Assembly: GCA_003171065.1 (NCBI GenBank) | Contig: PMXQ01000019.1 | Location: forward strand, 1 to 43,599 | Length of the DNA stretch: 43,599 nt | Direction of reading: 5' to 3' | Origin: Chloroflexota bacterium | GTDB taxonomy: Bacteria > Chloroflexota > Limnocylindria > Limnocylindrales > CSP1-4 | Shown: positions 39,080 through 43,599 of the stretch, one piece after another | How positions within the stretch are numbered: the first letter of the stretch is position 1 | Layout of the letters: every line of letters begins with the position of its first letter | Made by a program: the position numbers and the translations under genes | Notes under the pieces: generated by a model | Databases searched by the model: none | What the model saw: only the letters and a program-made list of their open reading frames with translations | What the model was told of the DNA's origin: nothing

Positions 39080-40213
39080 CTAGCCCGCCGGGCTGAACAA
39101 GTCAGTATTGGGGTCGTACAACTCCGCCGAAGCATCAACTGTATCCGCATTGCCCTGACCCCCGGCGACGAAGACACGGCCATCCGACAGGAGTGTGGCA
39201 ACGGGCCAGTAGCGAGCCACGGTCATCGAGCCGGTAGAACTGAAGGTGCCCGTCTTCGGGTCGTACACTTCCGCGGTCCGGATGGCGCGGCCGATCGCGT
39301 TCGTCCCGCCGACCAGAAGGACTCGCCCGTCGGTGAGTGGAACCGCAACATGATCGCTACGCGGCTCGATCATCGATCCACTCGGCGTAAACGTGCCTGT
39401 TCTTGGGTCGTACAACTCCGAGTATGCGATTCTCTCTACCTCGCCGGCCTGCCCTCCCGCGATGAGGACTCGGCCGTCGGGCAGCAGAGTCGCGGTAAGT
39501 CCCGAGCGCGCCGTGGTCATCGAGCCTGTGAAGCGGAAAAGGCCGGTCGATGGGTCGTAGATCTCGGCCGACGCAAGGTCGTGCAGTTGGTCGTTCACGC
39601 CACCGACGAGCAGGACGCGTCCGTCGGGAAGAAGGGTCAGTCCTCCCCACCTGTGGCCGTCGGCCGTCCGACCGGTCGGGCTAAAGGTGCCCGTGCGCGG
39701 ATCGTATAGATCGGCGCTACCGTTGGTGTCTATGACCAGAACGCGGCCATCTTCGAGGATGGTCGCCATCCCGCCGGAGTTCGTCTTGCTCATCGATCCG
39801 GTCGGCGTGAACTTGCCGGTCGTGGGGTCGTACAGCTCGGCCGATGTGAGGTCGGTTGGCGACCCGCTGGCACTGTTGCCACCGCCTGCAATCAACACCC
39901 GTCCATCTTCGAGTAGGGTCGCCGTGTGACCCTCGCGGGGGACGGTCATCGACCCAGTCGGAGTGAACTTGTCGGTCTTTGGGTCGAGCAACTCGGCGGA
40001 GGCCGTGGCCTGCGTGTTCGCCCCTGAGTATCCTCCGGCGACTAGTACTCGTCCGTCAGCGAGCAAGGTCGCGGTACCAGCCACGGGGCCGGGGACTTCG
40101 GAGGTTGCGCTCCTGCCTGAGCATCCTGCCCCGGCTGCGATGAGCAGAGACAAGACGAAACCTAGGGCAGCCAACCGGGAAAGGCGCCACGCTCCAACAA
40201 GACTCGATCTCAT
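39080..40213 (-). CDS. Exported kelch-repeat protein
   Basis: 377 residues. Basic start and hydrophobic core LAALGFVLSLLIAAGAGC end in a lipobox-like Cys31. The rest is about seven kelch blades of some 50 residues, each with the pattern TATLLxDGRVLxAGG ... AELYDPxTGxFTPTGSM, giving a beta-propeller on the cell surface. Its ATG overlaps the stop of the larger RHS gene by 4 nt (ATGA), so it is coupled to that gene, the usual place for an immunity or accessory gene. It ends directly against the orphan RHS fragment. Immunity function is a guess from position; kelch proteins more often bind carbohydrates or proteins. Confidence 0.85.
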   Translation of the reverse strand: MRSSLVGAWRLSRLAALGFVLSLLIAAGAGCSGRSATSEVPGPVAGTATLLADGRVLVAGGYSGANTQATASAELLDPKTDKFTPTGSMTVPREGHTATLLEDGRVLIAGGGNSASGSPTDLTSAELYDPTTGKFTPTGSMSKTNSGGMATILEDGRVLVIDTNGSADLYDPRTGTFSPTGRTADGHRWGGLTLLPDGRVLLVGGVNDQLHDLASAEIYDPSTGLFRFTGSMTTARSGLTATLLPDGRVLIAGGQAGEVERIAYSELYDPRTGTFTPSGSMIEPRSDHVAVPLTDGRVLLVGGTNAIGRAIRTAEVYDPKTGTFSSTGSMTVARYWPVATLLSDGRVFVAGGQGNADTVDASAELYDPNTDLFSPAG

Positions 40214-41727
40214 CTGCTAAACCACGGCAGCGGTCGACGGGGTTGCGCGGGCGACTGCGCTTGAGGAACAAACGGCGCCATGCCGCCTCCGGTTATCTGA
40301 TCGTTGTAGTAGTCAACCGTGATGTCCCAGTCAGCCGGAGCCTGGGCCTTCCAGGCGCGATTGTCTCGAGTGCCGACCATCCCCGCCAGGTCGGCAACGC
40401 CCTCGCCAGCGGCCTCTCCGCCCTGACTGGCAGTATCCCCACCTAAGGTACCGTAGGAATACGCGAGTTCTCCAAGACCGAGCAAGCCTTCGCCTAGTCC
40501 AGCGACCACCTGGGTGACGCCTACAGCCGTCGTGAGCGGGTCCGGGTTCACAACGGTAGAGGAGTCTGGCAGAAACCGAACGAACGTTGTGTCGTTGCTG
40601 TCGAAGTATTTGTCGGCACTCGGGCGATCATCGGGCGTGGGTGTCCGAGTTGCGCAAGTCTGCGTGCAAGTCGTCTGGCGAAAGCCCTGGACGTAGTCAA
40701 GGGCCGTCTGCCATATACCCTCGTGATGAGCCCACTCCGGATCCGTCGGGTCGTGGTGGGTCACGACCCATAGGGCATAAGCACCGTTCGCCTGAAGGTA
40801 CTGGTCGTAGTTGGCCTCGTCCTCGGCCTTGCCGCTGCCCTTCAGGATCAGTATCTCGTTGATGTCTTTGAAATCCGACCTTCCTGGTGGGAGCTGGAAC
40901 GAGGCCTGGTATGTGTTGGTGACCTCGCTGTCGTCAGTCAGGGAGCCGTAGTGGTCCATCCAGACGTCGAATACATATGGCACGATCCGCTTGGGTGCCC
41001 GCGGTCCGGCGGAACCACCGCCGCCAGACGAGGACCCGCCGCCACTCGAAGAGCCACCGCCGCTTGAGGAACCGCCGCCGCCAGACGAACCCGTGGGAGG
41101 ATCAGCTTGGGCGCAGTAGCTGTACATGCCATCCCACACATACTTCGCGCAGTGCCCGTCCGGGTCCACCAGAGTCTCCGGGTTGGCCTCGGCGTAGAGG
41201 TAGCGGTTGAGGCTGAGCGGGTTCCCGGCAGAGCCCGCGACCGAGTCGAGGCTGGTGAAGGTGCCAAGATCGGGGACATAGGCGCGAGCCCCGAAGTCGT
41301 AGGTGGCGGAGCCGCCGGTGGACTCCAGGATGCGACCTCCAAAGCGCCAGGGCGAGGGCACGCCACTGGCGGGCTTGGAGGTTCCCAGAGCGTTGCCGTA
41401 GGCGTCGTAGCGAAAGACGTCCTCGATCGAGCCCGCGCCGGTGCACTGGGCGGCGATGTTGCCGTGGAGATCGGGCACGATCCAGCCGAAGCCGCCGGTA
41501 GCACTCGTGGCGAGGCGGTCGCCCGCCGAGTCGATGCCGGCGTTGATCGTGCCAGCGGTACTGGACACGTCCTGGAGGACCGAGTCACTCGTGCCCAGAT
41601 AGGCGTAGGTGTCGATGGTTGAGGCGCCCGATGTTCTGGTGGCATGGCGTCCGGCGGCATCGAAGGTGAAGCCCACGGTGGTGCCATTCGCCTGCGTGAT
41701 CGAGTCGAGACGATCGGCGGGATCGTA
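40210..41727 (-). pseudogene. RHS protein, 3' half (gene split by IS110 insertion), with unknown C-terminal domain
   Basis: Begins within a YD repeat (DPADRLDSITQANGTTVGF) at the insertion point and is open for 505 codons to TGA 40210. RHS end motifs: WIVPDLHGNIAAQC, FRYDAYGNALG, GARAYVPDLGTFTSLDSV, LNRYLYAEANPETLVDPDG. The variable tail starts at HCAKYVWDGMYSYC, followed by a Gly/Ser linker (41011-41098) and about 250 residues with no family I recognise: aromatic and acidic (PYVFDVWMDHYG, WVVTHHDPTDPEWAHHEG), a CTQTCA pair, a hydrophobic Gly-rich segment, and DWDITVDYYNDQ. This position normally carries a toxin. The reading frame is intact but cut off from its 5' part by the element; its neighbour downstream is the kelch gene. 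Confidence 0.82.
41011..41098 (-). repeat. Gly/Ser-linker coding repeat in RHS tail
   Basis: Short repeated units encode blocks of three Ser and three or four Gly, a flexible linker of about 28 residues between the RHS core and the unknown C-terminal domain. Such linkers are uncommon at RHS tails, where a Pro or HINT junction is typical. Confidence 0.75.
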
Positions 41728-41744
41728 TCGGCTATGAAAGGCAG

Positions 41745-41940
41745 GACAGCAGTCAGTGGCCCGGCGTAGTCTGCGCTGACCGGGACAGGGGCTCCTGTCG
41801 GGACACCAGCTTTGGGGCAGGCCGGTATACCTGTGGACTTCGAGTCCGTGGTCGTATGTGGCCGCCCCTGCGACTCGCCCGGTTGCGCCTTGAGCGCGGA
41901 TCCGTAGGTGTCGTGTTGCCCAGGGCCGGTGTCGATCGAC
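41745..41940 (+). ncRNA. Candidate bridge RNA of the IS110 element
   Basis: IS110-type recombinases use an element-encoded RNA that pairs with target and donor DNA. The non-coding 5' end has foldable parts: 41752-41758 with 41774-41780; GACAGG/CCTGTC at 41784-41799; and 41820-41863, a stem with internal loop capped by GGACT-TCG-AGTCC. ATCCGTA at 41900-41906 equals the element's right end (43341-43347), as expected for a donor guide, and GGTCGTA at 41850-41856 can pair (one G-T) opposite the left target GATCGTA. RNA ends are estimates; guide assignments are inference. Confidence 0.5.
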
Positions 41941-41970
41941 TTGGAGAACGAGCAAGAGGAGGAAGCGACG

Positions 41971-43242
41971 ATGCGCAGCATCGGACTCGATCTGGGCCGC
42001 CACAAGGGTGAGGCGGCGGCGGTCGATGGCCACGGACGGGCGGTCAGCCTCGGATCGGTGGAGGTCAGCCCCGCCGGTCTGGCCGATCTGATCGGCCGAC
42101 TCCGACCCGACGACCGGGTGGTGATCGAAGCCAGCACCAACACCTGGTCGATCGCGGAGCTGCTGACACCTCATGTAGCCCAAGTCGTGGTCTCCAATCC
42201 GCTGCGCACACGGGCGATAGCGGAAGCCAAGGTCAAGACCGACCGGATCGACGCTGCGGCCCTGGCCGAGCTGCTCGCCGCGGACTACATTCCGGCGGTG
42301 TGGCAGCCCGATCCCGATACCCTGGCTCGACGCCGGCTGGTCAGCCTGCGGGCAAGCCTGGTCCGAGGCCGCACCGGCGAGCGCAACCGGGTAGCGGCCA
42401 TCATGGGCCGCCGCCTGGCCACCTGCCCGGTGTCGGATCCCTTCGGAGTCGCCGGACGAGCCTGGCTCGAGGAGCTCGAGCTGCCTGCCGACGAGCGCCT
42501 GGCCCTCGATCTGCACCTGCGCCTCCACGACGCGATCGCGGCCGAGATCGCACTGACCGAGACCGCCATCGCCCGCTCGGTTCGCGACAGCGCCTATGTG
42601 CGCCACATGCTGAGCGTGCCGGGCATCGGTCTGACCACCGCCGCGGCCCTCGATGCCCTGATCGGCGACATCGCCCGCTTCGCTCGACCCAACAAGCTCG
42701 TGGGCTATCTCGGGCTGGATCCAGCCGTCCGCCAAAGCGGGGCCCGCAGCTACACCGGCCACATCAGCCGGGCAGGTCAAGCCCACGCTCGGGCCCTCTT
42801 GATCGAGGCCGCCCATGCCGCGGTCCGGACTCCAGGTCCTCTGGCGGGCTTCTATCTGCGGATCCGCCGGCGTCGCGGAGCGGGTGTGGCGATCGTGGCC
42901 GTGGCCCGCAAGCTCGCCGTGCTTGTCTGGCACCTGCTCACCAAGGACCTCGACTACGCCTGGAGCCCGCCCTCTGCCAGCGCGGCCAAGATCCGCCGTC
43001 TGGAGCTTCTCGGAGGCGACCGGAAGCGCCTCTCTCGCGCCGGGATCGTGATGGGCGAACCAGAAGCGGCCAGGGCTGCTCGCAAGGCCGGGCGAGCGCG
43101 GGAACGGGCCATGCTCACCGGTGCCCAGACCGCCTACGAGCGGTTCGTCGCGAGCCGGAGCGCCAGAGCGGATGCGGCCGCCGCCAGCGGGGAGCGACTC
43201 GATGGTCCGGCAGGGCCGGAACCGGCTGCGCCGCGGAGCTGA
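41971..43242 (+). CDS. IS110-family transposase (DEDD recombinase)
   Basis: 423 residues from ATG 41971, with AGAGGAGG eight bases upstream. The RuvC-like N-terminal domain has Asp7 (IGLDLGRHKG), Glu53 (VVIEAS), and Asp91/Asp94 (KTDRIDAAALAELL), the DEDD set. The C-terminal Transposase_20 domain has MLSVPGIGLTTAAALDALIG, LVGYLGLDPAVRQSG, and HISRAGQAHARALLIEAAHA with the conserved Ser region. A Lys/Arg/Ala-rich tail of about 60 residues follows. No frameshift, so it could be active. Two internal helical stretches separate the domains. Expression as inserted would rely on read-through, since the junction promoter forms only after circularisation. Confidence 0.95.
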   Translation: MRSIGLDLGRHKGEAAAVDGHGRAVSLGSVEVSPAGLADLIGRLRPDDRVVIEASTNTWSIAELLTPHVAQVVVSNPLRTRAIAEAKVKTDRIDAAALAELLAADYIPAVWQPDPDTLARRRLVSLRASLVRGRTGERNRVAAIMGRRLATCPVSDPFGVAGRAWLEELELPADERLALDLHLRLHDAIAAEIALTETAIARSVRDSAYVRHMLSVPGIGLTTAAALDALIGDIARFARPNKLVGYLGLDPAVRQSGARSYTGHISRAGQAHARALLIEAAHAAVRTPGPLAGFYLRIRRRRGAGVAIVAVARKLAVLVWHLLTKDLDYAWSPPSASAAKIRRLELLGGDRKRLSRAGIVMGEPEAARAARKAGRARERAMLTGAQTAYERFVASRSARADAAAASGERLDGPAGPEPAAPRS

Positions 43243-43329
43243 TCCCCATGCTCCGCCGTTTGCCACGGGGTCCGACCGCATCCAGGTCCTGAGTCTAGCC
43301 ACCCGACCGACCGGCGCAAGCCTGGCGAG

Positions 43330-43335
43330 TTGACA
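43330..43335 (+). promoter_or_regulatory. Outward -35 box at the IS110 right end (half of a junction promoter)
   Basis: TTGACA points out of the element, 12 nt before the CGTA edge is complete. In the integrated form it faces RHS sequence GGTGTAGG and has no -10. In a circle it would be followed, after 17 nt, by TATGAA from the left end (41733-41738), giving a near-consensus promoter for the RNA and transposase. Confidence 0.65.
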
Positions 43336-43343
43336 TTTTCATC

Positions 43344-43599
43344 CGTAGGTGTAGGTGGTCGGCTTCAGGCTGCCCGAGTCCGGACCACAGGGCTGGCTCG
43401 AACGCAGGTTGCCCAGGGCATCGTAGCCAAAGGCGGAGGAGCCGGAGCCGCCGGCGGCCGGACCCTTCCAGATGAGCTCGTCGGTGGCGTCATAGGCGTA
43501 GTAGAAGGTCACTCCGGCCTCACTCACCGCGGTGCGGTTGCCGTCGGCATCGTAGGTGTAGGTGCGGGCCTCGGGGATCGAGCCATCAAAGGAGCTGGC
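43344..43599 (-). pseudogene. RHS protein, 5' side of the split gene (continues beyond window)
   Basis: Open on the minus strand from the window edge: YD repeats SIPEARTYTYDADGNRTAVS, FYYAYDATDELIWKG and FGYDALGNLRSS, ending KPTTYTY at the element edge. Codons resume on the far side as DPADRL. The full gene would extend well past base 43599. With the insertion, a polypeptide from this side would end at the stop TGA a few bases inside the element, removing the whole C-terminal toxin part. Confidence 0.85.

What the first reader, a model, noticed from the sequence alone, without database searches (positions are those of the whole stretch)
41745..41970. Bridge-RNA-like region with matches to the element end and target
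ATCCGTAGGTGT occurs in the 5' non-coding region (41900-41911) and again across the right element-target junction (43341-43352), a 12-nt exact match. Seven of these bases equal the element's right end plus CGTA, as a left donor guide should. GCCGGTG at 41925-41931 can pair, with wobbles, with TATCGGC formed at the left end. GGTCGTA (41850-41856) and CCTGCG (41867-41872) can pair with the two halves of the target. Individually the short matches could be chance; the set and its order argue for a functional guide RNA.
Basis: partly seen in the sequence, partly recalled or inferred. Interest (0 to 1): 0.75.

Follow-up and report, generated by a model that had tools for sequence, protein, structure and literature searches.

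The report
Bridge RNA with swapped guide order
A jumping gene of the IS110 family, sitting inside a repeat-rich RHS gene, carries a guide RNA whose two short stretches match the two halves of the spot it jumped into; such guide RNAs are already known, but here the two guides come in the opposite order to the best-studied example.

Summary
The region is real and is a bridge RNA. An IS110-family insertion sequence (about 41725-43346, 1620 bp) interrupts an RHS/YD-repeat gene. Its RNA (about 41801-41930) is conserved across Chloroflexota, Actinomycetota, Alphaproteobacteria and other bacteria, and its stems carry compensatory changes. Across 46-70 distinct RNA/flank pairs only two strong covariation diagonals appear: the 3' side of loop 1 with the left target, and the 5' side of loop 1 with the right target. 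In the window both guides pair 7/7. An uninterrupted paralogue in the same genome confirms the junction.

[quoted passage not shown] Only six bases (ATCCGT) of the 12-nt match are guide; the other six match by chance.

So the RNA lies upstream of the recombinase gene, as in IS110 elements, but reads top-strand match then bottom-strand match, the order published for IS1111 and the reverse of IS621 and ISEc21. I call it a new variant of a known kind. Whether published figures already show this order could not be checked.

The parts
41727..43346 (+). IS110-family element, 1620 bp counting one copy of the core GT
   Evidence: own-genome paralogue aligns without a gap across the joined flanks GATCGT|AGGTGT; relatives share both ends
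41725..41726 (.). left copy of core GT (right copy 43345-43346)
   Evidence: exact overlap is the ambiguous CGTA in the window; a relative (L037) whose joined flanks are 100% identical to 8 plasmid records fixes GT
41720..41726 (+). left half of target (GGATCGT); the reverse strand encodes Tyr-Asp of the YD repeat
43347..43353 (+). right half of target (AGGTGTA)
41801..41930 (+). bridge RNA, conserved stretch as modelled
   Evidence: covariance model R1 scores 122.6 bits here (the window is one of the 26 sequences it was built from); next best in the window 10.5
41815..41867 (+). target-binding loop: closing stem 41815-41818+41820-41823 with 41860-41867, apical hairpin 41834-41838/41844-41848
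   Evidence: 99-100% of cells paired; apical stem with compensatory changes in 12 and 5 of 26 sequences
41826..41832 (+). right target guide TATACCT (5' side of loop 1), pairs with top strand 43347-43353
   Evidence: covariation diagonal 1.54 against a permutation maximum of 0.62; 7/7 pairs with its own target, at most 4/7 with the targets of 38 other copies
41850..41856 (+). left target guide GGTCGTA (3' side of loop 1), pairs with bottom strand of the left target
   Evidence: covariation diagonal 1.60 against a permutation maximum of 0.67; 7/7
41871..41913 (+). donor-binding loop: closing stem 41871-41874/41910-41913, apical hairpin 41884-41888/41894-41898
   Evidence: 100% paired, compensatory changes in both stems
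41877..41883 (+). right donor guide GCCCGGT (5' side of loop 2), pairs with left-end bases 41727-41733 (6 of 7, two wobbles)
   Evidence: CCGGTT/AACCGG exact in many relatives, CCGGAT/ATCCGG in L038; covariation not significant, p=0.085
41900..41905 (+). left donor guide ATCCGT (3' side of loop 2), identical to the element's right end 43341-43346
   Evidence: almost constant in RNA and in right ends; too little variation for a covariation test
43330..43335 (+). -35-like TTGACA in the right end; with TATGAA at 41733-41738 in the left end it forms a promoter-like pair with a 17-nt spacer only when the ends are joined
   Evidence: spacing of 17 in 32 of 37 distinct circle junctions
41734..41739 (+). 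left copy of short subterminal inverted repeat ATGAAA (right copy TTTCAT 43337-43342)
   Evidence: 3-9 bp in relatives
41971..43242 (+). recombinase, 423 aa, DEDD_Tnp_IS110 and Transposase_20 domains

Best explanation
The element is an IS110-family transposon whose upstream non-coding region makes a two-loop bridge RNA. [quoted passage not shown] Loop 2 reads the element's own joined ends in the same polarity: 5' side with the left end, 3' side with the right end. When the element excises, the joined ends form a sigma-70-like promoter that should transcribe the RNA and the recombinase. The recombinase then recombines the circle into a site matching loop 1, at a core containing GT. In this genome the site was a Tyr-Asp repeat codon pair in an RHS gene. 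Shown by sequence: ends, empty site, conserved structure, covariation of both target guides. Inferred: transcription, binding to the recombinase, activity, and the role of loop 2.
For: Recombinase family: NF033542 'IS110 family RNA-guided transposase' 220 bits against a 140-bit cut-off, Pfam domains, profile match to IS621 and ISCro4 structures. Empty site: own-genome paralogue, gap-free at the junction. Structure: 99.7% of 572 cells paired against 31.5-51.2% when slid; 21 double-sided changes against 6.3 shuffled. Two strong covariation diagonals only; window guides 7/7 and 7/7. Divergent guides match their own targets best (7 guides, p=0.0002, the floor of that test). G-U pairs in stems fit the + strand as the RNA. 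Junction promoter spacing of 17 in 32 of 37.
Against: Single copy in its genome, so no proof of recent activity. Folding energy of the single window sequence is not unusual (z -0.19 and -0.99). Donor guides hardly vary, so they rest on complementarity, not covariation. Rfam has no such family. Copies share ancestry, so the permutation values are optimistic; sequences were down-weighted by similarity but not by a tree.
Confidence: 0.93

Rival explanations
1. IS621-like guide order: left guides 5' and right guides 3', with the right target guide at 41867-41872 and the right donor guide at 41925-41931.
For: Short pairings exist in the window itself (CCTGCG with CGTAGG; GCCGGTG with TATCGGC), visible.
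Against: CCTGCG is nearly invariant and sits in and between the closing stems, with no covariation with the right flank. GCCGGTG is in an unconserved stretch outside loop 2. The 5' side of loop 1 takes the right-target signal.
Confidence: 0.03
2. The conserved upstream region is a structured leader or attenuator of the transposase gene and the matches to the flanks are chance.
For: It lies directly upstream of the recombinase gene and could be co-transcribed with it.
Against: Guides vary exactly where the flanks vary, across at least seven clearly different guides and with two sharp diagonals.
Confidence: 0.02
3. A decayed copy: the RNA and ends are real but the element is no longer mobile. 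(This can be true together with the best explanation.)
For: One copy in the genome; no near-identical relative found.
Against: The reading frame is open with the DEDD residues kept, guides still fit the current target 7/7, and both ends are intact.
Confidence: 0.2

Closest known systems
IS621 bridge RNA (Durrant et al. 2024, PMC11208160)
   Same: DEDD recombinase, RNA upstream of the gene, two loops for target and donor, core bases included in the pairing, promoter formed at the joined ends
   Different: IS621 has the bottom-strand (left) guide on the 5' side and the top-strand (right) guide on the 3' side; here both loops are the other way round. Recombinase about 28% identical and longer (423 aa; the solved IS621 chain has 328).
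ISEc21 seekRNA, IS110 type (Siddiquee et al. 2024, PMC11187229)
   Same: upstream RNA, target inside genes of other insertion sequences in many relatives, promoter at the circle junction
   Different: ISEc21 has the top-strand match 3' of the bottom-strand match; here it is 5'
IS1111-type seekRNAs (ISEc11, ISPa11, ISKpn4; PMC11187229) and IS4321
   Same: top-strand match 5' of bottom-strand match; subterminal inverted repeats set in from the ends (here 7 bases on the left)
   Different: IS1111 elements carry the RNA downstream of the gene and usually have longer repeats (7-17 bp); recombinase 24% identical to IS4321; the model does not detect an RNA in the R751 locus that carries IS4321
ISMch4 (Methylobacterium, L038) and the related elements
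   Same: same RNA family, same ends, same guide order; recombinase about 46% identical
   Different: different guides and targets

Membership tests
IS110 family (broad) | DEDD/RuvC recombinase with C-terminal Transposase_20 domain | tested here: met
   D7, E53, D91, D94 invariant and S or T in the GLxPxxxxSG motif
IS110 family (broad) | structured non-coding RNA inside the element with two guide loops | tested here: met
   (target loop by covariation, donor loop by complementarity)
IS110 family (broad) | RNA is expressed and bound by the recombinase | not testable with these tools
   needs small-RNA sequencing or co-purification
IS110 group (IS621/ISEc21 type) | long non-coding region upstream of the gene, short right end | tested here: met
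   244 nt upstream and 104 nt downstream of the gene
IS110 group (IS621/ISEc21 type) | bottom-strand match 5' of top-strand match | tested here: not met
   order is reversed in loop 1
IS1111 group | top-strand match 5' of bottom-strand match | tested here: met
IS1111 group | long non-coding region downstream of the gene | tested here: not met
   it is upstream in the copies examined
IS1111 group | subterminal inverted repeats of 7-17 bp | tested here: inconclusive
   6 bp in the window, 3-9 bp in relatives
IS1111 group | recombinase clusters with IS1111 recombinases | tested here: inconclusive
   small tree: the family is separate from both IS4321 and IS621, which group together on long branches

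The most novel reading that the evidence does not exclude
A widespread third arrangement of bridge-RNA elements: RNA upstream of the gene, as in the IS110 group, but both loops read in the polarity published for IS1111. Guide polarity and RNA position would then be separable, and the 5' side of the donor loop would read the end that carries the RNA instead of the far end.
Probability: 0.5. Interest if true: 0.58.

Novelty: new variant of a known kind. Interest (0 to 1): 0.5.

Why it matters
Predicting targets for IS110 elements, and choosing recombinases to reprogram, depends on knowing which side of each loop reads which half of the DNA. The swap also bears on how the IS110 and IS1111 groups evolved from each other. 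In addition, three copies of this Chloroflexota clade sit in RHS genes (the window and L031 at the Tyr-Asp codons), so the guide appears aimed at a repeated coding motif.

Tried and rejected
First empty-site model with a three-base overlap ATC, rejected once relatives showed that the right end reaches CATCCGT and the paralogue fixed the junction. Right target guide in 41860-41875: pairing above control in some registers, but that stretch is nearly constant stem sequence, and the real signal came from the 5' loop side once it was included. Single-sequence folding was uninformative. Protein search of genome contigs found nothing; a DNA pattern for the RNA found 115 loci. Viral contigs: none. Rfam: none. 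Full target pattern GRTCGTAGGTRTA elsewhere in the genome: none. L015/L006 (37% identical) looked at for guide order: their ends are short and gave nothing.

Full report
What is there. The window holds an IS110-family element whose 423-aa recombinase is encoded at 41971-43242 (Pfam DEDD_Tnp_IS110 and Transposase_20; NCBIfam NF033542, 220 bits; profile match to IS621 and ISCro4). It interrupts an RHS/YD-repeat gene on the opposite strand. A paralogue in the same genome (G000:C79:5144-5432) is uninterrupted and aligns without a gap across the joined flanks GGGATCGT|AGGTGTAGG; the join restores the reading TYTYDP. The overlap between the two ends is CGTA. A relative in Bradyrhizobium (L037), whose joined flanks are 100% identical over 300 bases to records such as NZ_CP086137, narrows the core to GT. 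The element is single-copy.

Relatives. A protein search in related genomes gave six copies, 47-63% identical. Their upstream regions align closely with the window. A DNA pattern drawn from that RNA found 115 loci in GTDB species genomes, from Chloroflexota, Actinomycetota (Thermoleophilia), Alphaproteobacteria and Verrucomicrobiota; plasmid relatives include ISMch4. Those whose ends could be read keep CATCCGT as the right end and a GGxxATGA-like left end.

Structure. In 26 divergent RNAs four stems are paired in 99.7% of cells against 31.5-51.2% when slid. Compensatory changes appear in the apical stem of loop 1 (AU/GC in 14/12 sequences, GC/AU in 21/5) and in both stems of loop 2. G-U pairs in these stems would be mismatches in the opposite strand, so the RNA is read from the + strand. 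Single-sequence folding was uninformative.

Guides. Covariation between RNA segments and flanks gave two strong diagonals: the 3' side of loop 1 with the left target (identity to the top strand, 1.60; permutation maximum 0.67) and the 5' side of loop 1 with the right target (complement of the top strand, 1.54; permutation maximum 0.62); nothing else exceeded 0.67 (left guide first seen). Over 39 copies with both flanks the right guide pairs 4.92 of 7 with its own target and 3.51 with others' (p<0.0001). In the window both guides pair 7/7, and its right guide pairs at most 4/7 with any other copy's target. Seven clearly different left guides match their own targets best (p=0.0002, the floor of that test). 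These permutation values ignore shared ancestry and are therefore optimistic, although similar sequences were down-weighted.

Donor loop. The 3' side ATCCGT is identical to the right end in nearly all copies (L034 has CTCCGT). The 5' side CCGGTT is the exact complement of AACCGG in the left end of many relatives, and CCGGAT of ATCCGG in L038; in the window GCCCGGT pairs with ATCGGCT at 6 of 7 positions. This rests on complementarity; covariation was not significant (p=0.085) because the donor hardly varies.

Promoter. Joining the ends places TTGACA (right end) 17 bases before TATGAA (left end). The same spacing holds in 32 of 37 distinct junctions, matching in kind the junction promoters reported for IS621 and ISEc21 (PMC11208160, PMC11187229).

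The 12-nt match. Only ATCCGT is guide. The following AGGTGT is RNA sequence shared with relatives that have other targets and runs into the closing stem; its match with this particular target is unique among 37 pairs.

Comparison. Durrant et al. (PMC11208160) place the bottom-strand guide on the 5' side and the top-strand guide on the 3' side in IS621. Siddiquee et al. (PMC11187229) report that order for ISEc21 and the reverse for IS1111 elements, whose RNA lies downstream of the gene. This family has the upstream position with the reverse order. I take 'top' in both papers as the strand of the recombinase gene. Published figures for ISPpu10, ISAar29 and ISHne5 could not be viewed, so priority is uncertain.

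Targets. L031 and L032, the nearest copies, also lie in RHS genes: flanks read ...DALRYDPYGETLAQ... for L031 and ...VTDALR for L032. L004 and L005 lie elsewhere. L037 sits in an IS256-family transposase gene; by my reading of their flanks L034 and L038 sit in IS6-like and IS481-like genes.

Noticed in passing
40210-43302, - strand: A 1030-aa open frame runs from the truncated RHS gene through the element in antisense, so the interruption does not close that frame.
   Followed up: no
L034, L038 ends: In the class with left guide GTTGTTA or GCCGTTA the overlap at the junction seems to be a single T (target TT, element GT), unlike GT elsewhere.
   Followed up: partly
L148 and L036 right ends: Right end repeated in tandem (three and two copies of ...CATCCGT), as if the end were itself re-targeted.
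   Followed up: no
L090: Two copies of the RNA 250 bases apart.
   Followed up: no
G034:C57:20324-20451 (L170): Bridge-RNA match; the protein search found no recombinase relative on the same strand just downstream of it, so possibly a remnant.
   Followed up: no
G000:C22 (L015) and L006: A different IS110-like element, 37% identical, with short ends and no evident long non-coding region.
   Followed up: partly
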